Source of the DNA: a virus
Strand: one strand, 5' to 3'
IMG/VR virus record: IMGVR_UViG_3300034190_000197
Span: 1 to 22,647 of that record
DNA: 22,647 nt
The stretch's first letter is position 1. Each line of letters begins with the position of its first letter. The translations under genes and the position numbers were made by a program. This document shows positions 30 through 18,533 of the stretch, one piece after another. Under the pieces are notes generated by a model. The model was not told where the DNA came from and did not search any database. It was given only the letters and a program-made list of their open reading frames with translations.

Positions 30-2834
30 CTACTGACCTTTCAGTGCAGAGACTTCCGCTTTCAACTCTTTGACAGCTTCTACAAGCAAGCCGATAAGCT
101 GGTCGTACTGCACAGTCTTATATTCGGTCTTGTCATCTTCGCCCATCTTGAGTGGCAATGTGCTTTCAGTGATTGCGCTAGGAAGAACCTTCTCAACCTC
201 TTGGGCAATGACACCCGCAGATTTCTTACCATCAGCAGTGTATGTGAAGGTGTAGCCGTTTAGCTGTGCAACCTTATCCAGAGCGCCATCAATCTTAACG
301 ATGTCAGTCTTGAGGCGTTCATCAGAGACTGTAGTTGAGTAAGCAATGACGTTGCCATCAACGTGCAAATCACCGTCATTTTGCAGAAGCATGTCCGTAT
401 TGCCATCAAGAACAAACTCTATCTGGGTAGTGCCGACATTGATGTAATCGTTGGTGTCACGACCAATTACCCAAGCCTCACCACGCAAGTCACCGCCGTT
501 GATTGTTCCGTTGACTGTGATTCCGCTGGAGGTGGTTTGGAATTTTAGCGAGTTATTGAAATAAAGATAAACACCATCATCATGCGCAAAATACGCCATA
601 GTTTCAGTACCGTCATACTTTTGAATATAAGTACCTGCACTTGAGCGAATGGATAGATTACCTGTGCCAGCTTCACTTATAATACTTTGAGTACCATCAT
701 GATAAATCTGGAGGTCATTAGAATTTCCAAAATTAGCCTTGGCGTTGTCGTTGAGGGAGATGCTATCCGAAGCCATTTCGCCTGTGACTGTTACACCATT
801 GCTTTTTGTGGCGAGTTTGGTGCCACCATTATACATAAGGCTTGTTGCGCCACCATTGATGGCTGAAATCATATTCTGATTGTCGGCAGCATTGTTTACA
901 TAAAAGTTACCCGCAGTAATAGTCAGGTTGCCTTGACCTGTGTCTGAAATATAGCTGTGCGTTCCACTATGGTAAATCTGTAGGTCAGACCCTGCGCCGA
1001 AGATGGCTTTATCGTTGTCACCGAAGGACAAATCACCCGTCATGCTGTCGCCAGTGACGGCAACAAAGTCTGTGGCTGCGGCGGTGGCGGCTGTTCCAAG
1101 AGTCGGAGTGCCCGACAAGTCACCATAAGCACCAGAAGTGGCAACAGTAGCCAAGTCGCCCGGTTGAGTTGCGCTGTCAGCTAGTGTGCCTTGAGCAGCG
1201 GTAGCGTAGTCTGTAGATGCTGTAGAGGCCGCAGTTCCCAGTGTGGGAGACCCAGATAGATCGCTATAAGAGCCAGTGGTTGCAACAGTGGCCAAAGTGC
1301 TAGGGTCAAATGGGGATGGAGTCCCAGATAGATCGCTATAAGCGCCAGAGGTTGCCACAGTCGCAAGATCGCCCGGTTGTGTAGCTGAAGCAGCTAAAGC
1401 GCCTTGTGCAGCAGTAGCGTAGGCTGTGGAGGCTGTGGTTGCCGCAGTGCCAAGGCTATCAATGATTGCCCCATCAGCTGCCACATCTCGGCCATCTACA
1501 GTCCCCGTAACTGTAATATCACCAGTAACGTCTATGCCTGTGCTAAAGTTTACATTGCTGTAGAAGGTGCCGCCGTTGCTGGATGACACCATATCGGCTG
1601 TTGTAAAGGTCTTGAAGGCGACTACATTCAGTTCATCGTTCACTACAGTCGCATCAGTAAGAACAATTGTTGTACCATCAGTAGCGGTATAATCAGTTCC
1701 AGCCTCAAGTATCACACCGTTTAGGATGAGAATGAGGTTATCCTGTGTGTATGCAAGTGTATTACTATTGTCGTCGCTACCAGAAAAAGAAGTCTGCCCA
1801 GCAGTCGCTGTAAACGCAAAGTTAGTTAAAGAAGCACCACCAGCAGCAGAGGCAGCAATCCATTCTGTACCGTCCCAGATGAACATACCGCCCGAAGCAC
1901 TGTTATAAAATAGTGCGCCAGTGGCCAATGCGTTACCGTCATTATCAACGGTCGGCTCTGAGGCTTTTGATCCAAGGTAGGTGTCATCAAACTGATCAAA
2001 GATAGCCGCAGCAGATGAAGCACTGGATGCGGCAGCTACCTGTGAGTTACTCGCAGCCACCTGAGAGGCCGCAGCAGCAACCTTGGATGCCTCGGCAGCC
2101 GTGGCACTTGTAGATGCCTCCCCAGCCTTAGTCGTTGCTATGCCAGCCTGAGTTGTGGCTGTCGCGGCGCTTGTGGAAGCATTAGTCTCTGCGGTCTCCG
2201 CAGCAACCTTTGCGGCCTCAGAGGCAGTCTTCGCTGTCTCACTAGCGGTTTGGGCTGTCTCAGCATTGGCCTCTGCGGTCTCAGCAGCAACCTTAGCCAC
2301 ACCAGAGGCCACGTTAGACGCTTCAGATGCAGCAGCGCTAGTGGCGCTCTCAGCTGCTTTGGTGGAGGCTGTGGTGGCGCTAGTGGCCGCAGCATTCTGG
2401 GAGGATAAAGCAGCGGCTGCACTGGCGGCAGCATTGGTCTCTGCTGTTTCCGCAGCAACCTCTGCGGCTCCAGAAGCCACCTCAGATACACTGGCTGCGT
2501 CACGGGCAGTCTCTGCTGCGGTCTTGGCTGTTTCTGCGGCGGCCTTAGCGGCCTCAGATGCAACTCTGGATGCCTGTGAGGCAGCGGCAGAGGTGGAGCT
2601 TGCTGTGGCACTAGTTGCGCTCTCAGAAGCCTTTGTGGTGGCTGTTGATGCAGAGGCTGCGCCAGATGATGCTGAGGTTGCAGAGGCAGCAGCAGAGGCA
2701 GCAGCAGCAGCTTCAGAGAGGGCCGCTGCGTTCTTGCTGTCTTCAACCGCAGTTATGTTGCTAGGGGCTACTGGATCAACATCTGTGTTGTCAGGAGTTA
2801 CACCAGTGCCGCTGTAGAAAGATGATGATGCCAT
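30..2834 (-). CDS. Long tail fibre protein with C-terminal S74 intramolecular chaperone
   Basis: 934 residues. Residues about 35-277 are almost entirely Ala, Ser, Thr, Glu and Lys in AAETA-type repeats, likely a long trimeric coiled coil. A linker at 278-335 carries FDDTYLGSKASEPT and WDGTEW. Residues 336-410 look like a beta domain, and 461-577 hold two 71-residue-spaced repeats. DLQIYHSGT and DLQIYHDGT beta repeats follow near 617 and 707. The C terminus has the S74 (endosialidase-type) chaperone motif SDERLK with Ser837 and Lys842, then a helical end. In that family the chaperone drives trimerisation and cuts itself off before the serine, here releasing 98 residues. The start ATG has GAGG about six bases upstream and lies eight bases after the adaptor gene. 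The likely role is host receptor binding; the receptor cannot be read from sequence. The low-complexity DNA produces several long spurious frames on both strands. Confidence 0.93.
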   Translation of the reverse strand: MASSSFYSGTGVTPDNTDVDPVAPSNITAVEDSKNAAALSEAAAAASAAASATSASSGAASASTATTKASESATSATASSTSAAASQASRVASEAAKAAAETAKTAAETARDAASVSEVASGAAEVAAETAETNAAASAAAALSSQNAAATSATTASTKAAESATSAAASEASNVASGVAKVAAETAEANAETAQTASETAKTASEAAKVAAETAETNASTSAATATTQAGIATTKAGEASTSATAAEASKVAAAASQVAASNSQVAAASSASSAAAIFDQFDDTYLGSKASEPTVDNDGNALATGALFYNSASGGMFIWDGTEWIAASAAGGASLTNFAFTATAGQTSFSGSDDNSNTLAYTQDNLILILNGVILEAGTDYTATDGTTIVLTDATVVNDELNVVAFKTFTTADMVSSSNGGTFYSNVNFSTGIDVTGDITVTGTVDGRDVAADGAIIDSLGTAATTASTAYATAAQGALAASATQPGDLATVATSGAYSDLSGTPSPFDPSTLATVATTGSYSDLSGSPTLGTAASTASTDYATAAQGTLADSATQPGDLATVATSGAYGDLSGTPTLGTAATAAATDFVAVTGDSMTGDLSFGDNDKAIFGAGSDLQIYHSGTHSYISDTGQGNLTITAGNFYVNNAADNQNMISAINGGATSLMYNGGTKLATKSNGVTVTGEMASDSISLNDNAKANFGNSNDLQIYHDGTQSIISEAGTGNLSIRSSAGTYIQKYDGTETMAYFAHDDGVYLYFNNSLKFQTTSSGITVNGTINGGDLRGEAWVIGRDTNDYINVGTTQIEFVLDGNTDMLLQNDGDLHVDGNVIAYSTTVSDERLKTDIVKIDGALDKVAQLNGYTFTYTADGKKSAGVIAQEVEKVLPSAITESTLPLKMGEDDKTEYKTVQYDQLIGLLVEAVKELKAEVSALKGQ
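1104..1454 (-). repeat. Two 46-residue repeats inside the tail fibre gene
   Basis: Two in-frame copies, at 1317-1454 and 1104-1241, are spaced 213 bases (71 codons) apart. They encode LGTAA.TAST.YATAAQG...ATQPGDLATVATSGAY.DLSGTP with few substitutions. A shortened third copy of the second half (LATVATTGSYSDLSGSP) lies between them. This type of shaft repeat allows fibre length to change by recombination. Confidence 0.85.
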
Positions 2835-3859: not shown

Positions 3860-4744
3860 TTAGGAAAGGCCGGTGATCTTCACACTGTCCGCGAAGTTAC
3901 TGTGTTTACAGGAATATTCGCCGACCACCATATGGCGATCTGAGTCACCTTGCTTGGCTAAAAGTGTGCGTGTGAACGGACGCAGTACGCATGTTTTGAA
4001 CATGGACGGGTCGATCAACAGGGCGTGTGAAGTCTCTAAGTGTCTGTTAAGAACCACTTTATATTCGCCATAAGGCGAGACATAGAGGTCTATCACATTC
4101 ACGAGGGTCTTACCCTGGGCGACTTCACGGTTGCGACCAGCAGATGCTGAGAAACCGGCAACGATTTGGGCGTCAGCTGGTTTGATCATGAACACTGACG
4201 GATCAGAACCATTGTTGAACGCTGTTTGGCCAGCTTCAAGCAATTTCGCCTCTGTAAGGGCGTCCGCTGCTCCGGCACCGGCATCAACAGCAGTAGAGAT
4301 CTGGTTGATCAGTGATGCCATTTTACGAGCTGTGGAAGACGAACCAGCGACAGCTGCTTGGTCAACACCAACAAGGCTGAACTCCAAATCGCGCTTAATG
4401 CTCTTGAGAGTTTTACCAAGTTGCAGCGCAGTTTCCTTGGCTCGGCCATAGGTTTTTACCGCATCAGCAGAACCAGAAATACGGAAGGTTTCTTCCAGGA
4501 TCTGGGTGTTGTTGGTACGCTCAACGATGTCGATCAGAGTGATATCTGCGGCATCTGCGCCCTCGACCTTAGCGTTAGACGCTGCGGCGCGGAGGCTGTC
4601 TTCGAGGAATGAGAACGTCCGTGCGGACACTTTCTCAGTCTTCGTCATTGTCAGCATAGGCGTATCTGTGGGAGTAATATCTGAGAGGATATTGGAAACG
4701 TCCTCGGCCTTACCGACCTGAGAATAAGTTGTGTAAACAGTCAT
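3860..4744 (-). CDS. Major capsid protein (SU10-like / DUF5309-type)
   Basis: 294 residues. The ATG has AAGGAG eight bases upstream, a strong site that fits the most abundant virion protein. The pattern matches a family of podovirus capsid proteins: an N-terminal YSQVGKAEDVSNILSDITPTDTPML, a helical spine near 95-125 (AKETALQLGKTLKSIKRDLEFSLVG), VIDLYVSPYGEYKVVLNRHL at 217-236, and the C-terminal block LLIDPSMFKTCVLRPFTRTLLAKQGDSDRHMVVGEYS, compatible with a compact HK97-fold subunit. Known relatives form the icosahedral shell around a scaffold. It follows the scaffold gene by 37 bases and is followed by a stable hairpin that may protect its message. No separate protease gene is visible, so maturation may not need one. 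Confidence 0.85.
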   Translation of the reverse strand: MTVYTTYSQVGKAEDVSNILSDITPTDTPMLTMTKTEKVSARTFSFLEDSLRAAASNAKVEGADAADITLIDIVERTNNTQILEETFRISGSADAVKTYGRAKETALQLGKTLKSIKRDLEFSLVGVDQAAVAGSSSTARKMASLINQISTAVDAGAGAADALTEAKLLEAGQTAFNNGSDPSVFMIKPADAQIVAGFSASAGRNREVAQGKTLVNVIDLYVSPYGEYKVVLNRHLETSHALLIDPSMFKTCVLRPFTRTLLAKQGDSDRHMVVGEYSCKHSNFADSVKITGLS

Positions 4745-10459: not shown

Positions 10460-13400
10460 TTACGCGGAAAGGGCACCCATACCCGGAGGTGGGGGACTTA
10501 GAGCACCAGGAGGCATCTGCATCCTCTGCTTCTCTTCCTCTTCTTCAGCCATAGCCTGGGCCAACATAGCCATGACCGTAGCCATGACGATAGCAGCTGG
10601 GTGGTTGAAGAATTTGACCTTGTTGTTACCAGCGTTGTTGAATTGTTGCCTGATAAGGGCAGCCGTCTTAGGCATAACGGCTTTCGCCAGCTTAGGGTTG
10701 ATCAGGTAAACCAACACGGGATCAACAGCCAACTCGCGTACACTCTGCATGTAGTTAGTGTAGTAGTCAGCCTGCTCCTCACGGTTGGCCACGCCTGTGT
10801 CTACCTCAGCTTGGGAGATTTGACCGGCATCAAATTGCTTCTGGTAATAACCCTTCCAATCCTTGAGATTGTCCGACAACTTACGAACTTCCCGTACCGC
10901 ATGACGCTGCGAAGGATCTTTGGTTGTGTAAGTATCCACATTCAACTGGAGATTATCTATCTCAGCCATGATGTCGGCGTCACCCGTCTGTTCCAATAGG
11001 GGTCTCATAGCACTACCAGCAAAGGATCCCATGGGTGCCCGGTCACTTTCCCCGGTCAGGGGGTTGGTAAACAGGGTGTCTTCAACCTGAGAACCATTCA
11101 GATCTAAGGGGCTCAATGTCATCCCATGGGCAATCTCATGGATCAAATCAGAGAGAGCTTGGATGTTACTTACGGAACCGCCGTCATCCAGCATAGCTCC
11201 TGGGTTGAGACCAAAGACAGTGCCTTCTGCACCTTTTCCGCCTGTTTCAGGACCCTTCCGATAGAACGAGGCAACCGCAGTGGGATCGCCAGATCCATAT
11301 GCAGCAAGCCGCGAGGCATACATCTCTCCCTGGCTGTCAAATAGACGGACAGTGATGCCCAGGGTGTGTGCCAAGCTCAGAGCCTGGTCGATAGACTGGA
11401 TCCCATTCTCTTCTGGGGTTCCACGTTTGCCAACCTGGAAGGTCGCTTTTACCTGGGGGACAAACTTCTTGACCGCTGCGAGGGCTACCCTTGCGAGAGT
11501 GCGCCCTTTGGAGGCCCCGCCATCACTGGACCTGGGTGTTCGTCCACCAGCTGGCCCAGGGGGGCTGAGGAGGGCTGGTTGGGTGCTGTTGTCGGCTGCT
11601 GCCTGAGATCCATCAGGCCCTGTATAAAGTCTCCCATCTTGTCCTTCGGGACCTGGGATATTATTGATGGCTCCGCTTCGCTCTGATGCGGGGAGTGCTT
11701 CTTCAATTTGCTCATTTGTTATTCCTTCCTTTGTGGCAAGCATCTTAGCAGCATCGAGGTAGTCGTTGTCAGACCCCCGACCTGGTGCTACGCCACCTTT
11801 TCTGAATAATTGCTTCTCTGGATACCACATAAGGGCCTGGAAGTCAGCTGTCGATATATCTATTCCTATTTCTTTCAGTTTAGATATTGCCTCTTTTGTT
11901 ACAGACCGCATGTAAGAACGCTCACCTGCATTCTTTGGTTGCGCTTGTAACTGGGGAACCATGTTTTTTACCATAGTTCCGGTGGATTTAAATAGTTGAG
12001 GCTTTGGCGGTTTAGCTTTAGGGTTTTGCTTCTTAGATTTACGGAAAAACGCCTGATATCTTTTGTCTAGCTTAGACACAAAGGCATCTAAGGTTTCGTC
12101 ATTCTTTAGGTCTGACTTTTTAAGACCCATATCCGACATCGTCTCTTTAACCAGTTGTTTTCCAAAGACATCAGCAGACGCCAGCTCGGCTCTTATTGTT
12201 GACCTGTTTTTATCTAAATCCTTCAGGTCTTCAAAAGCACGGCCAGTAAGTCTATTCCACATACGCATCCACCAGATATCCATTGTCAGTGGGTCATAGT
12301 TACCTCGGATGTTCTGGTAGAAACCTTGGCCAATCTTAGGGCCTACAATGTAAGATCCTTTGACTATTTCGGACGCACCCTCAGATGAAGGAACAGTGAT
12401 ATCCGTACCATACTGGCTGTTGAACTGTCCGATATATTTAGTCAAATCACTGACGGTAAAATCGGAGTCCAGGAAGTCACGCATTGGCACATTCTGACCA
12501 GAATCCTGGTAAGCGTTAAAGAATGAGAAGGCATCAACCATAGACTGGTTGCGTTCCCCACCTTTTATCCATGTGTCTGTAGGCATACGTCCAGTATCCA
12601 TAAACTCACGGAAAACCATCATTGCGTATTCAAAGTTGTCCGCAACAGCCTGGCCGTTGGATGTCACAGCCAATGCATAGTCGAAAGCAGCCTCAGCTTC
12701 GGGTGATTGAGTTACCCTGGGATCTACAAGTGATACAACTGACTTTGCGGCTTTTAACTTACGGTCATACCAACCTATGGCATTACTATCAGAGTTTAAT
12801 GCATTAGCAGCCTCTGTAGCCATAAGACGTGCAATCTGGTCGATATTCTCAGGTGTCTGTTCAAATGGTGTAGTTCTACCAGTAGCTGCCTGCCAGCGGT
12901 CTTGCAGTACTTGGGCAAACTCAACTAAAGTGCGTTTTTGTGGGGGTTTATATGTCCCACCTTTCATTTCAGATAGCTCGCCGGGGCTCGGCATGATGGT
13001 CATATTCGTGGCAGCCAAGTCCGCATCAGAAACCTGGAGTGGGTTGTTTACCTGGCTGAGTGCGGGGCCTGTTGGCACCTCAGGAATACTACGACTGTCG
13101 TCTGCCTGCGGTGGTGTGGACACAGTGACTTTGTCGTAAACCGGGTGGGGCTTACCCCGAACACTAATGTTCCCAATGATGTTGCCGGTCTGCACCTCGC
13201 CCTGGGTTGTAGGACGTAAACGTGGCTCAGAAGGCTGGTTAGGATATGTTTCTAAGGAAACTGGGTTCTGAAGGTTTGTGTCTAGACTGTAGACGTGCTT
13301 GCCACGGATCGTAGTCGAAACCACTGTCGCCGGGCCATCGTAGTCAATCCACTTCCAGCCAGCTTTCTGTTTGAACAGATTTACCTTTACTTTAGGACCG

Positions 13401-16111
13401 TCTGCTTTGGTAGCTGGCTCCGCTGTAGTGTCGTTGGTCTCTAGGACGGGTTTGCCATCAACGACTTTAACCGAGCCACCTGTGTATGTGGTCCCCGTGA
13501 CATCCTGTTTAGTATCAAGGTCGATATAGTTGCCACCAGGTACAGGATTTTGTACGCCAAACATTTCTTGCATATCGGGCTTATTGTAGGGAACAGGGAT
13601 AACACGGGCATCGTCAGAGATAGCCTCTTGAGTAGCCTGGGCCTGCTTCAACATCGATGGTTTGCGCTTCTGCTGGCGGCGAACCCGATCGACATAGGGC
13701 TTATAGAACTTGTCCACGTTCTCCTGGGAGACACCCTCATCAACGAGTAGCTGTTGGACCTCTTCCATGGCCTCGATTGGCATATTCTCAGTCTGGACCG
13801 CCTCTAGGGCTGTATAAAGTGCCTCTAGCTCAGTGTCAGGTAGATTGGGGGTGTCGAGTAGCTGCGCTTGAAGGCGTAGGCCCTCGGTGCGGTTCGCATC
13901 TATGCCAGCCTGGTAGTTCTCGGACGTAGTTGTCTGATTGCCGTTAACCGTAGGCTGCGCTGGGGCAGTTGTGTCAACATTTGGTGCCGGAGACGCCTGG
14001 GCAGCAGGGGCTGCGTCCATTTTGGGTACATTGCCCATCTGGATTGCCCGAGCCTGGGCCAGAGGTTGGTCTGGGAGGCTAGTACGCTGAACGCTACTTC
14101 CACCGTCCATGAGACTGGCGTCCAGGTGGTTGTTCACCAGGTTGACCAGCTGGGTGAGAGCCCGGATAGGCCGTTGCTCACCGTTAAGACCCGCCTGGGC
14201 ATCATCGAGGACCTTGTTGATCGCCACATCATTGGGGTTCTTGCTGTCAGCTGGGTGCTTCAAGCGTAATTCAGAGACCACTGTTTGGATCTCTTCTGCG
14301 GGGATACCTGTGCCGACCGCGACAGTGCCCAATGGGCTACCATCTGTGGCGTTGCCTGTCATGCCTGCAAGTGTACTGACGATGTTGGCGTCTTCTGCCT
14401 CCTGGGCTGCCCTGGCTGCTGCATCGTCAGCCTTGGCTTGCTCTGCCTGCTGTCTCTCTAGGGCAGCCGCTGCAATTATGGACTCACCGTCTGGGGCAGG
14501 TTGTCCTGTGAGTTTTTCGAGCTTCGTTACAAAGCGGTTGACCTTGGAACGGCGACCCGTGGCTGCATCAACGGCCCGACCGGCGGCAACAATGCCTGCG
14601 GACTTCAGTGGGCCAACAACAGATGCACCATAGAGGCTACCAATTGTGCTGAGACTGCGGTTGGGGTCGTAGTTACCTGAATTGTCAGTGAACGGGTTTA
14701 GGAAGTCCGTGAATTGGCTGACGCCACCTTTGAGGCCGTCTTGGAAGAGATCTGTGAGGACATCTCCCTGGGCAAACAGGTCCAACAGCTGACCGGCTTC
14801 TAAGGAAGTAGGCCCTAGAAGGCGGACGATAGCGTCAGCATTCTCTTTTGTGACCTTAGATTTGACTTTGTTCTTACCCTGGCGGATGGCAGTGGCGGCT
14901 GCGGCGTAGTCTTCTAGTAGCTGATCGAGAGTTTCTGCATTCTTTGGAGACAACCGAGCTTTAACATCTGGATGGGTGGCTATTGCCGAGATCTGGCCCG
15001 AGATCTTCTCATGTGCAGCCTCGAGTGTAGCTTTTGCACCACCACCGGCGCGTACATCCTTGAGGTTGTTGCCTTGAGCTTCTGATATTTCACGGAGGGT
15101 ACGAGCCAGGTCAGCAGCTGCGCCACCATATGCGGGGTTCTCCATTTTCTGAGCCCAGACAGTCTTGCCTACATTGGCCGCCTCAGCGCCAGCCTGCACT
15201 GATCCGCGAATAGTACCACCACCCGCACCGCCCTTGGCAGCAGACTCAAACAGGCGATCACCAATTTCCCCATCTTTGAAGTCTTTACCGGCAATAGCCT
15301 CTGCGCCGATGGACACACCCTCTTGGGCAGCCTCTGTGACGGCCTCAGTAGCAAAACCTGCGGTAACTGCCTTGGTAAGGCGACCCAGGCCATTCTTCTC
15401 CAAGAGCGCGGTTATGCCCTTAGTGCCGAGCTTACCTATAACCTCTTTTGGGACGCCCTTCAAAAGCATACCAATACCAAGGTTTTCTAGTACAGCATAA
15501 AGTGCACCACCAGCGGTTGAAAGGCGGATGCGGTCCTCTCGGGACAGCCCTTCTATATCCTTTAGATTGTTATTGACCTCACCCGCGCCGAGTAATGGCG
15601 TGAGCGAACCACCGCTGGCAAGTGCTGCAACCATAGGTCCTATGCTCTCAGCGGTAGATGTAGCAGCAAACTGAATAGCACTTGGGATGCCTGTTACATC
15701 AGCTGTTGTCATAGGTGTATAATTTAAGTCATCCACTTTGTTACGGAGGTTCTGTTCCCTCAGGGATTGCTCGGCACTAAATGCGTCTGCTATCTCCTGG
15801 CGGGACTTTGTCTCTAGGCCAAATGCATCACGAACAGGTCGAACAATGTTCTCTGTTCCCCAGTTCAACATAGAACCTACAGGGCCATCCTCGAGCTCCT
15901 GGTTGGCGTCACCTAAATAGCCAGCGACATTTGCCCTGGCACCTAGATCCCCATATTCCAGGGCATCCACTAAAGAGCGGTTGGGGGCCGCTGCGGCTGC
16001 GGGAGCCTGGCCACGCTCTTGTTGAGCCAGGTATGCAATAGCGCCTTCTGCGGTGGCACCACGCACGGTTACTGTTCGCCCGTCAGGCGTTTTTATCTTA
16101 AAGTCAGGCAT
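10460..16111 (-). CDS. Giant internal virion protein with C-terminal zinc-metallopeptidase-like domain
   Basis: 1883 residues; the ATG has AGGA eight bases upstream. The N terminus (FKIKTPDGRTVTVRGATAEG) resembles a short domain seen at the start of large phage virion proteins. Residues about 150-310 are Gly/Ala-rich and hydrophobic, and about 545-575 form an Ala/Gln coil. Residues about 1080-1440 form a conserved-looking module with NAIGWYDRKLKAA (Trp1114), TMDIWWMRMWNRLTGR (near 1276) and LMWYPEKQLF (Met1428). Near the C terminus IHEIAHGMT gives His1658, Glu1659 and His1662, and RELAVDP gives Glu1793 as a possible third zinc ligand. A hydrophobic stretch at 1838-1855, poly-Glu and poly-Pro follow. 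Size, position after two small virion proteins and the lack of a tape measure suggest a protein ejected with the DNA. The peptidase could act on cell wall or host proteins; activity is inferred only from the motif. Confidence 0.85.
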   Translation of the reverse strand: MPDFKIKTPDGRTVTVRGATAEGAIAYLAQQERGQAPAAAAAPNRSLVDALEYGDLGARANVAGYLGDANQELEDGPVGSMLNWGTENIVRPVRDAFGLETKSRQEIADAFSAEQSLREQNLRNKVDDLNYTPMTTADVTGIPSAIQFAATSTAESIGPMVAALASGGSLTPLLGAGEVNNNLKDIEGLSREDRIRLSTAGGALYAVLENLGIGMLLKGVPKEVIGKLGTKGITALLEKNGLGRLTKAVTAGFATEAVTEAAQEGVSIGAEAIAGKDFKDGEIGDRLFESAAKGGAGGGTIRGSVQAGAEAANVGKTVWAQKMENPAYGGAAADLARTLREISEAQGNNLKDVRAGGGAKATLEAAHEKISGQISAIATHPDVKARLSPKNAETLDQLLEDYAAAATAIRQGKNKVKSKVTKENADAIVRLLGPTSLEAGQLLDLFAQGDVLTDLFQDGLKGGVSQFTDFLNPFTDNSGNYDPNRSLSTIGSLYGASVVGPLKSAGIVAAGRAVDAATGRRSKVNRFVTKLEKLTGQPAPDGESIIAAAALERQQAEQAKADDAAARAAQEAEDANIVSTLAGMTGNATDGSPLGTVAVGTGIPAEEIQTVVSELRLKHPADSKNPNDVAINKVLDDAQAGLNGEQRPIRALTQLVNLVNNHLDASLMDGGSSVQRTSLPDQPLAQARAIQMGNVPKMDAAPAAQASPAPNVDTTAPAQPTVNGNQTTTSENYQAGIDANRTEGLRLQAQLLDTPNLPDTELEALYTALEAVQTENMPIEAMEEVQQLLVDEGVSQENVDKFYKPYVDRVRRQQKRKPSMLKQAQATQEAISDDARVIPVPYNKPDMQEMFGVQNPVPGGNYIDLDTKQDVTGTTYTGGSVKVVDGKPVLETNDTTAEPATKADGPKVKVNLFKQKAGWKWIDYDGPATVVSTTIRGKHVYSLDTNLQNPVSLETYPNQPSEPRLRPTTQGEVQTGNIIGNISVRGKPHPVYDKVTVSTPPQADDSRSIPEVPTGPALSQVNNPLQVSDADLAATNMTIMPSPGELSEMKGGTYKPPQKRTLVEFAQVLQDRWQAATGRTTPFEQTPENIDQIARLMATEAANALNSDSNAIGWYDRKLKAAKSVVSLVDPRVTQSPEAEAAFDYALAVTSNGQAVADNFEYAMMVFREFMDTGRMPTDTWIKGGERNQSMVDAFSFFNAYQDSGQNVPMRDFLDSDFTVSDLTKYIGQFNSQYGTDITVPSSEGASEIVKGSYIVGPKIGQGFYQNIRGNYDPLTMDIWWMRMWNRLTGRAFEDLKDLDKNRSTIRAELASADVFGKQLVKETMSDMGLKKSDLKNDETLDAFVSKLDKRYQAFFRKSKKQNPKAKPPKPQLFKSTGTMVKNMVPQLQAQPKNAGERSYMRSVTKEAISKLKEIGIDISTADFQALMWYPEKQLFRKGGVAPGRGSDNDYLDAAKMLATKEGITNEQIEEALPASERSGAINNIPGPEGQDGRLYTGPDGSQAAADNSTQPALLSPPGPAGGRTPRSSDGGASKGRTLARVALAAVKKFVPQVKATFQVGKRGTPEENGIQSIDQALSLAHTLGITVRLFDSQGEMYASRLAAYGSGDPTAVASFYRKGPETGGKGAEGTVFGLNPGAMLDDGGSVSNIQALSDLIHEIAHGMTLSPLDLNGSQVEDTLFTNPLTGESDRAPMGSFAGSAMRPLLEQTGDADIMAEIDNLQLNVDTYTTKDPSQRHAVREVRKLSDNLKDWKGYYQKQFDAGQISQAEVDTGVANREEQADYYTNYMQSVRELAVDPVLVYLINPKLAKAVMPKTAALIRQQFNNAGNNKVKFFNHPAAIVMATVMAMLAQAMAEEEEEKQRMQMPPGALSPPPPGMGALSA

Positions 16112-16121
16112 ATGTGGTGTC

Positions 16122-16982
16122 CTATTCGGTAACTATTGAATAACCTGAGGTATCGGGGGCATTGGGGGCATTGAGAGATTGGCCGCCAGCAATAAACTGA
16201 CCACTAGTGGACCCGTCTGAGTAGGTGCCCACGGCAGTACCACCAGCCAGGCGGTTGTTCATAACACGCAGAGCCTCAGCATAATCTCTGACCCAGACCT
16301 CCCAGATAGCCTCCCCGTCAGTCCAGTTGGGCTGGGCAGAACCAAAGATATCCATCTCGCGTTCAGATATGGCACCTTTAGTTTGAGCAACGTAGGACAA
16401 CTGGTCGTCTACTTTGAGCTTGGCGATCTTCAAGCGTACATTTTCACGTTGGTTTCCCGTGATCTGGTCCCATTTGCGGAACATATAACCTAAGCCAACC
16501 ACACCATCATGGTCCTTGAAACCCTGGAGAACTTGCATGGCATTGTTGTACTTTGAGGAGGCAACAGCTGCTTCAAAGCCTGCGTCTTTATTTGGCTTAT
16601 TGGCTTTCGCTGCAATGGCTGCGGCCCGTGCCTGCTCCACTCGGCGGCTTTCCTCGATGGCAAAGGCTTGTTGTTCGGCCTGGCGGTTGTAATCTTGGAT
16701 GTTCCCGTATTCCTGGCCCATTGCTGCCATCCAGTTACCGCCAGCCCCTGAAGGATCTGAGGCTGATTGGAGGCCTGCGGCACCTATACGCATTAAACCC
16801 TCAGACCGCATGTCTATCTGACCAGAAGGGACCTTCGATGAACCTCGGGCATTACCAGACAGAGCTGGGGGCTTTGGGTTTGGCTGCTTTGGGTCTACTA
16901 AGGCTGGCTGACCCTCGGGATACTCCATCCCGTTGGCTTGACCCATGGTGAGTGCGGGGCGTCCGTAAGTAAATGCATTCAT
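16122..16982 (-). CDS. Probable internal virion / ejection protein
   Basis: 286 residues from the ATG at 16982, whose ATGA overlaps the stop of the preceding gene by four bases; an in-frame extension upstream is less likely. The first 90 residues are Gly/Pro/Asn-rich and probably disordered. A charged helix follows (QAEQQAFAIEESRRVEQARAA, about 101-121). The core at 140-247 contains LQGFKDHDGVVGLGYMFRKW, a helical LSYVAQTKGAISEREMDIF and GEAIWEVWVRDYAEALRVMNNRLAGG. The AISEREMDIF pattern resembles phage internal proteins. Position just before the giant protein and after another ejection-like protein suggests these three are packaged and injected together. No enzyme motif is seen. Confidence 0.65.
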   Translation of the reverse strand: MNAFTYGRPALTMGQANGMEYPEGQPALVDPKQPNPKPPALSGNARGSSKVPSGQIDMRSEGLMRIGAAGLQSASDPSGAGGNWMAAMGQEYGNIQDYNRQAEQQAFAIEESRRVEQARAAAIAAKANKPNKDAGFEAAVASSKYNNAMQVLQGFKDHDGVVGLGYMFRKWDQITGNQRENVRLKIAKLKVDDQLSYVAQTKGAISEREMDIFGSAQPNWTDGEAIWEVWVRDYAEALRVMNNRLAGGTAVGTYSDGSTSGQFIAGGQSLNAPNAPDTSGYSIVTE

Positions 16983-18013
16983 GATCCGAACCATCCTCCA
17001 ATTCTCTGACCCCAGGTTTCATCTCCACCTTTCTTGACCTTGCTGTTTGCAAATCCATAGCCCTGGATGCCCCCGGTAATTGCTGAACCTAATGGGTCAG
17101 AATAGTTGCCGGCAAACTGATTAGAGGTCTGAGGACCATTCTGGGTGAGCATCCCGTTCTTGTAGTCCGCGTAAACATTTGAAGCGAAGTCTCGGTTGCC
17201 CTCAAAGCGCATACGTTCATCATTCATTCGAGCCTGATCATAACCTTGGAGAGCACCCCCGGCGCCCATGCCCATTTGGTAACCTGTGTTGGCCGTGTTC
17301 ATACCTGAGTTGTAGGCATTCTCGATCGAGTTATTGGCTGCACCAGCGTTCATCAATGCGTTACCTTGATCGGCAAATGCTTGGCGCTGTTCACCCAGAG
17401 ACTGAGTGCGGAGGCCATCAAGAACTTGGGAAGACACATCCGCGCGGCGGTCATCGTAGGCACGCTCGGCTACTGCTGTAGCTACACCGGCGCGACTGGA
17501 GTTTGTATTACCCGAGCCACTTGCAGCCATATCAATGCCTGTCAGCGTGTTCTCTTGTAGGTTGCGACGATCGTCACGCATTGCGGCGTTAACCAGGGGG
17601 TTCATGTTGTCCATGGCATACTGGTTTGCAGTGTCCATGCGTCCCTGTGCAGACACGCCATTAGCCATACCCTGGTACTGGTCGTACAAACCACGGGCGT
17701 TTGCGCCAAAGCCTGCATTAGCACCAGCCATGTCAAAACCACGGTTCATGATGCCCATTGAGGCATCCCCGTAACCTCTGGCTGCGCCGGTCTGGTAACC
17801 ATTGGGGCCAGCATAGGTGGGTCCACCGTAGAAACCTGCGGCTAACCGGGCATCGTTGGCAGCTTGGCCGCCTTCTAATGCTTTGTCTGTGTATGGTTTG
17901 TATTGGTTGAAGCCAGCCATGTTCTGGCGGTTTGCTTCGTCTGCGGCGTTACTCTGTTTGTTTGCGCTGTAGAGACCTACACCGACGGATGCGATTGTTG
18001 CGATCCATGCCAT
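16979..18013 (-). CDS. Probable internal virion / DNA-transfer protein, Gly/Asn-rich
   Basis: 344 residues from MAWIATIASV at 18013, with GAGGA seven bases upstream; a GTG at 18031 in the same frame overlaps the previous gene and is less likely. A hydrophobic N-terminal segment (WIATIASVGVGLY) precedes a long region rich in Gly, Ala, Asn and Met. Residues near 140-175 hold MRDDRRNLQENTLTGIDMAASGSG and NSSRAGVATAVAERAYDDRR, a pattern I associate with podovirus internal or DNA-transfer proteins. The C-terminal part alternates short helices and Gly turns (ITGGIQGYGFANSK). The composition fits a protein that unfolds through the tail and refolds in the cell envelope. The specific family is uncertain. 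Confidence 0.65.
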   Translation of the reverse strand: MAWIATIASVGVGLYSANKQSNAADEANRQNMAGFNQYKPYTDKALEGGQAANDARLAAGFYGGPTYAGPNGYQTGAARGYGDASMGIMNRGFDMAGANAGFGANARGLYDQYQGMANGVSAQGRMDTANQYAMDNMNPLVNAAMRDDRRNLQENTLTGIDMAASGSGNTNSSRAGVATAVAERAYDDRRADVSSQVLDGLRTQSLGEQRQAFADQGNALMNAGAANNSIENAYNSGMNTANTGYQMGMGAGGALQGYDQARMNDERMRFEGNRDFASNVYADYKNGMLTQNGPQTSNQFAGNYSDPLGSAITGGIQGYGFANSKVKKGGDETWGQRIGGWFGS

Positions 18014-18017
18014 ATTA

Positions 18018-18533
18018 TTATTCCTCTTCACTCATCAGTGTGTGGGTTTGCATAAAGTCCTCGAGGCCAGACAGATCTGGTTCCTCCAAACCCATTGCTG
18101 AGTAAGTTGGGCTTATGACCTCTTCTTCTATGTCTGAGAGATCTTCTTCTTGGTTGTGCTTTGTTAGATGCACGGTCGTTAGGATTGCATCCTCGAGGAC
18201 GTGGAAGGCCCTCTTGGATCCCGCCGGTGAGACGAAGGTCACAGGTGCAACCAGGTCCTGTTTGCCACCATTCTCAGAAACAACCAGGACGCGGCCTTGC
18301 ATCAGGAAAGTCAGGTGAGGCAGCTTGTGTAGCTTACCTACGCAGACCGTACCTTCAGGCATAAACAGCTGTCGTGCATACTGGGCACAGCCATATTCGT
18401 CGCTCACAGGGGTAAAGTAATGCTCAACAGTAGCGTCCAGCTGTCTGTCTTGGATGTCTCCACGCTCAATACCAAGGTCGAGAATATACTGAAGAGAGGA
18501 GATGTCAGATCGTATGTTAAGGTCATGCTTCAT
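18018..18533 (-). CDS. Cupin-fold phage protein
   Basis: 171 residues from the ATG at 18533, which shares ATGA with the stop of the preceding gene; a TTG further upstream is unlikely. Residues 55-122 read as a small beta barrel: FMPEGTVCVGKLHKLPHLTFLMQGRVLVV, a glycine turn, then LVAPVTFVSPAGSKRAFHVLEDAILTTVH. His69, His73, His111 and His122 are placed as in metal-binding cupins. The tail after 127 is very acidic. Similar single-cupin proteins occur among structural genes of many phages, with unknown roles; enzyme and virion-decoration functions are both possible. The surrounding genes suggest it is made with the tail and ejection proteins. Confidence 0.7.
   Translation of the reverse strand: MKHDLNIRSDISSLQYILDLGIERGDIQDRQLDATVEHYFTPVSDEYGCAQYARQLFMPEGTVCVGKLHKLPHLTFLMQGRVLVVSENGGKQDLVAPVTFVSPAGSKRAFHVLEDAILTTVHLTKHNQEEDLSDIEEEVISPTYSAMGLEEPDLSGLEDFMQTHTLMSEEE

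What the first reader, a model, noticed from the sequence alone, without database searches (positions are those of the whole stretch)
10460..16111. Giant ejection-type protein ending in a zincin motif
The 1883-residue protein has IHEIAHGMT with His1658, Glu1659 and His1662, and a plausible third ligand Glu1793 in RELAVDP. It is preceded by a separate conserved-looking module at about 1080-1440 (GWYDRK, DIWWMRMW, LMWYPEK). A peptidase at the end of a protein likely injected with DNA could open the envelope, process the partner proteins or attack host targets. The motif is seen directly; ejection and activity are inferred.
Basis: partly seen in the sequence, partly recalled or inferred. Interest (0 to 1): 0.72.

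Follow-up and report, generated by a model that had tools for sequence, protein, structure and literature searches.

The report
Phage injection protein with swappable payloads
An uncultured short-tailed phage encodes a huge protein, probably injected into its host with the DNA, that ends in a conserved zinc-protease-like domain and carries a DNA-glycosylase-like domain in an interchangeable middle slot that near-identical phages fill with different domains; this is a new version of the known 'polyvalent protein' strategy.

Summary
The 1883-aa ORF lies on the minus strand (16111 to 10460). H1658, E1659, H1662 and the guessed third ligand E1793 are invariant in 54 of 54 distinct homologous C-termini, down to about 22% identity. 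A confident model puts HExxH in one helix and E1793 in a later core helix, but distances could not be measured and no solved structure matched. The separate module is real: its core is homologous to DUF7178, a phage family sometimes annotated DNA glycosylase (hhalign E=3e-6; shuffled controls far lower). The lysine and aspartate lined up with Ogg2-type glycosylase/AP-lyases are invariant, though that link is weak (E=0.085). The gene sits beside a DNA-ejection-protein relative and before the terminase, like the SU10 ejected proteins. Best reading: a phage polyvalent protein with constant injection chassis, exchangeable payloads, and a C-terminal zincin that probably frees them. Ejection, zinc binding, cleavage and glycosylase activity are inferred. 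New variant of a known kind.

The parts
10460..16111 (-). Giant late-gene protein, 1883 aa: predicted phage-type polyvalent ejection protein
   Evidence: flanked by the same genes in relatives with enough flanking sequence
15140..15994 (-). Variable N-terminal segment, residues 40-324; exchanged between near-identical phages
   Evidence: 22-28% identity here against >90% in residues 325-745; weak similarity of residues 205-318 to N4-like virion RNA polymerase PHROG 2206 (E=0.048) and of residues 174-274 to a LUZ24/tf-type 'particle protein' (E=0.010)
13628..15139 (-). Constant chassis, residues 325-828
   Evidence: about 91-96% identical among the closest phages although their payloads differ completely
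13604..13618 (-). Linker SDDAR, residues 832-836: exchange boundary 1
   Evidence: breakpoints at 828-838 in comparisons with L002, L004, L005, L006, L014, L023, L036, L039, L325
13106..13603 (-). Payload slot 1, residues 837-1002; unknown domain, absent in L004 and L006, replaced in L002, L023, L036, L039
   Evidence: no credible Pfam or PHROG family
13091..13105 (-). Linker ADDSR, residues 1003-1007: exchange boundary 2
   Evidence: breakpoints at 1006-1020 in comparisons with L326, L323, L004, L005, L006
11672..13024 (-).
   Evidence: hhalign E=3e-6, score 50.4 against at most 19.4 for 30 shuffled controls; model mean pLDDT 85.5; 13 matches at E<=0.001 in BFVD, several in proteins named as polyvalent
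12278..12337 (-). Core motif residues 1259-1278 (within GPKIGQGFYQNIRGNYDPLTMDIWW) with K1259 and D1278, candidate Schiff-base lysine and catalytic aspartate
   Evidence: invariant in all 51 sequences of A2 and in distant members L082-L085
11564..11596 (-). Linker ADNSTQPALLS, residues 1506-1516: exchange boundary 3
   Evidence: breakpoints at 1506-1514
10613..11479 (-). C-terminal zincin-like domain, residues about 1545-1833
   Evidence: model of residues 1525-1883 with most core blocks at pLDDT>90; alignment A1
11126..11140 (-). HEIAH active-site motif, residues 1658-1662
   Evidence: invariant H, E, H in 54/54; inside helix 1649-1666 of the model
10733..10735 (-). E1793, candidate third zinc ligand in RELAVDP
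   Evidence: invariant 54/54, with D1797 53/54; in helix 1791-1804 of the model
10463..10612 (-). C-terminal tail, residues 1834-1883: hydrophobic helix, acidic stretch and PGALS...GALSA end
   Evidence: nearly invariant P1838, A1844, G1869, L1871, G1879, L1881; absent from the longer LPD38-type giants
16979..18031 (-). Neighbouring gene, DNA ejection protein relative (PHROG 4287)
   Evidence: E=9.7e-5
16122..16994 (-). Neighbouring gene of unknown function, likely another ejection-cluster protein
   Evidence: conserved position in most loci

Best explanation
The ORF is a phage-type polyvalent protein: a giant injected effector chain of an SU10-like podovirus. A fairly constant chassis (residues 325-828) with a variable N-terminal part probably serves packaging and ejection. 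Slots between short DDSR-type linkers (837-1002 and about 1008-1505) hold exchangeable effector domains; in this phage slot 2 is a DUF7178/Ogg2-like DNA-glycosylase/AP-lyase-like domain expected to act on DNA in the newly infected cell. The constant C-terminus is a zincin with ligands H1658, H1662 and E1793 and base E1659. It most likely cuts the chain, in the head or after injection, at or near the linkers and so releases the payloads. Shown: invariant catalytic residues, domain homologies, conserved gene position, wholesale exchange of the middle between near-identical phages. Inferred: virion presence, ejection, zinc binding, peptidase activity, the cleavage sites, and glycosylase activity.
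For: Invariant HExxH and E1793 in 54/54 homologues and a confident model whose order of elements is the zincin core described for polyvalent proteins in PMC5512222. Gene order nozzle, small genes, ejection-type gene, giant, TerS, TerL, portal, scaffold, MCP kept in the loci with enough flank; in phage SU10 the corresponding late gp20-24 leave the virion on infection (PMC9509320; order). Module homologous to DUF7178 with invariant K1259 and D1278; the DUF7178 profile hits Ogg2 glycosylases first in the PDB (weak); stand-alone members are annotated glycosylase in some records. Middle region exchanged between phages about 99% identical elsewhere, breakpoints at the linkers. The module also occurs in longer LPD38-type giants with a different zincin and in BFVD polyvalent proteins. 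Iyer et al. propose autoproteolytic release for such zincins.
Against: No virion or ejection data exist. No PDB fold match for either model, and I had no coordinates, so the meeting of the three ligands is not measured. N4 vRNAP, which also has an HExxH domain, is packaged unprocessed (PMC5512222), and the passages found in its 2025 structure preprint report the motif but no protease activity, so cleavage is uncertain. Linkers may simply be flexible joints. The DUF7178-to-Ogg2 link rests on weak E-values.
Confidence: 0.6

Rival explanations
1. The C-terminal zincin is itself a payload: a protease that attacks host proteins after injection (defence, transcription or envelope targets), and does not process its own chain.
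For: PMC5512222 lists this as a possibility for polyvalent-protein zincins; the domain belongs to none of the zincin families tested here, as one might see for an effector.
Against: The zincin is part of the constant framework and is not exchanged while the payloads are; an effector would be expected to vary with the rest. It is present in every member of the group with a complete C-terminus.
Confidence: 0.2
2. The constant C-terminus acts mainly as a packaging or docking domain (with its hydrophobic helix and GALSA tail) that brings the giant into the head; the HExxH site is needed for structure or metal binding, not cutting.
For: In N4 the region with the HExxH domain is required for encapsidation and the vRNAP is packaged unprocessed (PMC5512222). 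The tail is nearly invariant here.
Against: Invariance of the catalytic base E1659, not just of the metal ligands, across homologues down to about 22% identity points to catalysis. Packaging and cutting are not exclusive.
Confidence: 0.2
3. The giant is an envelope-opening or channel-forming ejection protein whose peptidase digests peptidoglycan cross-bridges or envelope proteins.
For: SU10 ejection proteins include a transglycosylase (gp20) and are thought to form the trans-envelope channel (PMC9509320); the giant sits in the comparable cluster.
Against: No Pfam or PHROG match to peptidoglycan peptidases or lysozymes; a DNA-enzyme-like module and an exchangeable effector region are not expected of an envelope tool.
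Confidence: 0.08
4. The module is a DNA-binding or structural helical domain derived from HhH glycosylases that has lost catalysis.
For: PDB-level similarity is weak, Foldseek finds no solved glycosylase, and the module is over twice the size of DUF7178.
Against: Both candidate catalytic residues are invariant even in distant members, as are several surrounding motif residues.
Confidence: 0.3

Closest known systems
Phage-type polyvalent proteins (Iyer et al. 2017, PMC5512222)
   Same: Giant multidomain protein encoded among late virion genes, with a zincin-like HExxH domain combined with unrelated enzyme-like domains and presumed to be injected with the DNA
   Different: Payload includes a DUF7178/Ogg2-like domain (the paper's main text contains no mention of 'glycosylase'); payloads are swapped between near-identical phages at linkers; the zincin is not detectably close to the N4 or LPD38-type zincins
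N4 virion RNA polymerase gp50 C1 domain (HExxH)
   Same: Giant ejected protein of a podovirus with an HExxH domain in its C-terminal part; weak N-terminal similarity
   Different: Profile match limited to 14 columns around HExxH (E=2e-4); no RNA polymerase domain found here
Kuravirus SU10 ejection proteins gp20-24 (PMC9509320)
   Same: Same class of portal, capsid and nozzle proteins and a comparable gene cluster with the largest protein last
   Different: No detectable sequence similarity of the giant to gp20-24, and gp20-24 have no HExxH
DUF7178 (PF23802 / PHROG 3842), stand-alone phage proteins annotated in part as glycosylase
   Same: Collinear motifs WY, S..N, GxK..F..N, TxD and QA..W
   Different: About 450 aa against about 200, with large insertions; below the Pfam gathering score
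Ogg2 8-oxoguanine DNA glycosylase/AP lyase (PDB 9o00, 3fhf, 3knt)
   Same: Helix-hairpin-helix motif with Lys and Asp at matching spacing, seen through DUF7178
   Different: Similarity only through DUF7178 and weak (E 0.085-0.87); no direct match of the module

Membership tests
Zincin-like metallopeptidase (HExxH...E) | HExxH plus distant Glu, conserved | tested here: met
   54/54 invariant
Zincin-like metallopeptidase (HExxH...E) | Core of N-helix, three strands, HExxH helix, Glu helix | tested here: met
   DSSP of model m9ab0ec957dc3 against the description in PMC5512222
Zincin-like metallopeptidase (HExxH...E) | Fold match to solved zincins and ligands meeting in space | tested here: inconclusive
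   No PDB match at E<=0.001; coordinates not available
Zincin-like metallopeptidase (HExxH...E) | Zinc binding and proteolysis | not testable with these tools
   Needs purified protein
Phage polyvalent protein | Several unrelated domains in one polypeptide, with zincin | tested here: met
   Zincin plus DUF7178-like module; relatives carry other domains
Phage polyvalent protein | Encoded with late virion genes | tested here: met
Phage polyvalent protein | Packaged and injected into host | not testable with these tools
   Inferred from gene position and analogy with SU10 gp20-24 only
DUF7178 | Pfam gathering score | tested here: not met
   33 of 51 members weakly match, best E 0.0071; members scored individually reach at most 14.3 bits against a cut-off of 27
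DUF7178 | Homology by profile-profile comparison | tested here: met
   Prob 88%, E=3e-6, score 50.4 against shuffled maximum 19.4
HhH-type DNA glycosylase/AP lyase | Catalytic Lys and Asp around HhH motif | tested here: met
   K1259 and D1278 invariant; their equivalence to the catalytic pair runs through DUF7178
HhH-type DNA glycosylase/AP lyase | Significant sequence or fold match | tested here: inconclusive
   DUF7178 profile to Ogg2 E=0.085; module fold search no PDB hit
SU10-like virion module | SU10-type portal and major capsid protein | tested here: met
   PF23899 E=3.5e-184, PF17236 E=2e-76

The most novel reading that the evidence does not exclude
These phages carry a self-dicing injected payload chain: the invariant C-terminal zincin recognises the recurring DDSR-type linkers between domains, cuts the chain after injection and releases each effector, and the same linkers are where new effector cassettes are recombined in, so closely related phages can rapidly change what they inject, including a DNA glycosylase/AP-lyase used as an early weapon or counter-defence.
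Probability: 0.25. Interest if true: 0.82.

Novelty: new variant of a known kind. Interest (0 to 1): 0.58.

Why it matters
Phages must defeat host defences in the first minutes, before they make any protein. A constant injection framework with exchangeable effector slots would explain how near-identical phages differ in early host takeover, and it offers a ready way to find new counter-defence enzymes: read what sits between the linkers. It makes the long-open question of what zincins do in polyvalent proteins testable, because it supplies candidate cleavage sites.

Tried and rejected
Direct family searches of the whole protein gave nothing (Pfam) or weak hits (PHROGs; in hindsight phrog_3842 at 1253-1287 was DUF7178). 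PDB sequence searches with zincin and module profiles gave no significant hit; Foldseek against PDB none. ATLF, M78 and similar Pfam zincins match 1-3 members at E>=0.039 only, not accepted. Membership of the window zincin in the N4 or LPD38-type zincin clade rejected: matches limited to HExxH or E=0.023, while those two match each other at 3e-8. Direct homology to SU10 gp20-24 not found. Assembly chimaera as the cause of the swaps considered unlikely: the same alternative middle segments recur in contigs of different metagenomes (L002, L003, L014, L036; L023, L039, L041). A family-wide DDSR linker was looked for and not found: the motif is confined to the window's close relatives, other groups showing only similar FSR-type joints (FSR count P 0.0003-0.007 in four related LPD38-type proteins but none in L068), so a general cleavage signal is not established. 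Zincin profile search of viral contigs failed for lack of conserved stretches.

Full report
What is there. The window is a 22,647-base virus record of an SU10-like podovirus: SU10-type portal (PF23899, E=3.5e-184) and major capsid protein (PF17236, E=2e-76), scaffold and terminase, all on the minus strand. The finding is an uninterrupted 1883-codon ORF, 16111 to 10460, minus strand.

Zincin. A scan of viral contigs returned 80 loci. In 54 distinct C-termini H1658, E1659, H1662 and E1793 never vary, and D1797, Y1787, Y1802, P1806, K1810 and P1814 are invariant or nearly so. Identity to the window in this domain goes down to about 22%, so the invariance is informative. An HExxH arises in 18 of 5000 shuffles of this protein. 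AlphaFold2 on residues 1525-1883 with 53 sequences gave pLDDT above 90 for most of the core, with the order helix, strand, helix, strand, strand, helix (1649-1666, HExxH), insert helices, helix (1791-1804, E1793 near its start). That is the core that Iyer et al. describe for polyvalent-protein zincins (PMC5512222). I could not obtain coordinates, and Foldseek found no solved relative at E<=0.001, so geometry is not verified. Profile comparison shares only the motif with the N4 vRNAP HExxH domain (E=2e-4 over 14 columns; score 37.6 against a shuffled maximum of 17.9).

The module. Residues about 1030-1480 are the most conserved part. 33 of 51 members weakly match DUF7178 (best E 0.0071); in the members listed individually the match is always at the stretch around GPKIGQGFYQNIRGNYDPLTMD. 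I found a clear DUF7178 member inside a 3606-aa frame of a bacterial genome and from it the stand-alone phage proteins, several annotated glycosylase. A 50-sequence DUF7178 alignment against the 55-sequence module alignment gives hhalign probability 88%, E=3e-6, score 50.4; 30 column-shuffled controls score at most 19.4, and an unrelated profile pair about 18. The DUF7178 profile finds the Ogg2 8-oxoguanine glycosylase/AP lyases first in the PDB, weakly (E=0.085 for 9o00, 0.85-0.87 for 3fhf and 3knt). The residues lined up with the Ogg2 lysine and aspartate are K1259 and D1278, 19 apart here and 18 in DUF7178; they are invariant in 51 sequences and in the distant members L082-L085. That such a K and D are the Schiff-base and catalytic residues of HhH glycosylase/lyases is from my own knowledge of that family. 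Foldseek against viral models matches the module in 13 entries at E<=0.001, the best 1.6e-18, several named as polyvalent-type proteins.

Context. In relatives with enough flanking sequence the order is nozzle-like protein, small genes, w16979, w16122, giant, TerS, TerL, portal, scaffold, MCP; only L068, L071-L078 and L080, a different phage group with longer, in two tested cases LPD38-containing, proteins, differ. w16979 matches a DNA ejection protein family (E=9.7e-5). In SU10 the late genes gp20-24, of which gp24 is the largest and last, are in the virion and lost on DNA release (PMC9509320; gene order). The giant has no sequence similarity to them; its N-terminal part shows weak similarity to a LUZ24/tf-type particle protein (E=0.010) and to N4-like virion RNA polymerase (E=0.048). 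Ejection therefore remains an inference from position.

Swapping. Phages about 98-100% identical to the window in terminase, portal and capsid genes differ sharply in the giant. Residues 325-828 and about 1507-1883 stay near 92-99% identical, while residues about 829-1506 drop to about 20-40% or are partly missing. Breakpoints fall at 828-838, 1006-1020 and 1506-1514, where the sequences read SDDAR, ADDSR and ADNS; L326 and L323 keep slot 1 and change slot 2, L005 keeps slot 2 and changes slot 1, and L004 and L006 lack slot 1. A second variable stretch is residues 40-324. Alternative payloads include a divergent version of the same module (L002, L003, L014, L036), a large unknown domain (L023, L039, L041), a segment similar to the C-terminal region of PHROG 2579 (E=4.4e-30; ART-like to my eye, not tested) and one that looks ParB-like (L036; only E=0.075). 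The same alternatives recur in different metagenomes, which speaks against assembly error.

Mechanism. The simplest account is a polyvalent protein: a constant delivery framework, exchangeable injected effectors, and a zincin kept constant because it serves every payload. Autoproteolytic release is the role proposed in PMC5512222; the recurring linkers are candidate cleavage sites, but the DDSR form is confined to the window's close relatives, and N4 vRNAP is packaged uncut. I put autoprocessing at roughly even odds, and the polyvalent-protein classification itself much higher (about 0.85).

Novelty. Giant injected phage proteins with zincins are known. I found no description, in the papers that could be searched, of DUF7178-like domains in such proteins, nor of payload exchange at linkers between near-identical phages. 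Searches were limited to open-access papers.

Noticed in passing
L016, L018, L019, L061 and L030 (major capsid protein genes): The MCP gene of several relatives is interrupted; Rfam finds group I introns in L019 (16633-16836) and L061 (16171-16450 and 15663-15898). L030 is interrupted at a different place. The window's MCP gene (3860-4744) is intact.
   Followed up: partly
L068, L071-L078, L080: A different phage group has 2.5-3 kaa proteins with the same module in the middle, an N4-type HExxH domain upstream, LPD38 near the end (L071, L073), and repeated FSR-type joints that in L071 lie between predicted domains.
   Followed up: partly
window 16122-16994 and giant residues 1-324 (15140-16111): The neighbour w16122 drops to about 56% identity in some phages otherwise about 99% identical, in parallel with the start of the giant, suggesting they are exchanged or coevolve together.
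   Followed up: no
window 10463-10612: C-terminal tail of the giant: hydrophobic helix, acidic run and repeated GALS motifs, nearly invariant in this group; a possible packaging or docking signal.
   Followed up: partly
L091 (bacterial genome G094): A DUF7178 domain inside a 3606-aa open frame, likely another polyvalent-type protein, perhaps of a prophage.
   Followed up: partly
L082 (PQ492659.1): Limnohabitans phage DC33 is filed under Inoviridae but is a 39-kb circular record with a roughly 3.1-kaa protein bearing this module; the taxonomy looks wrong.
   Followed up: no
L028 and L050 (terL): Terminase large subunit split over two ORFs in these relatives; sequencing error, intron or frameshift not resolved.
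   Followed up: no
window 30-2834: Long Ala/Ser-rich tail-fibre-like protein ending in what looks like a self-cleaving chaperone domain.
   Followed up: no
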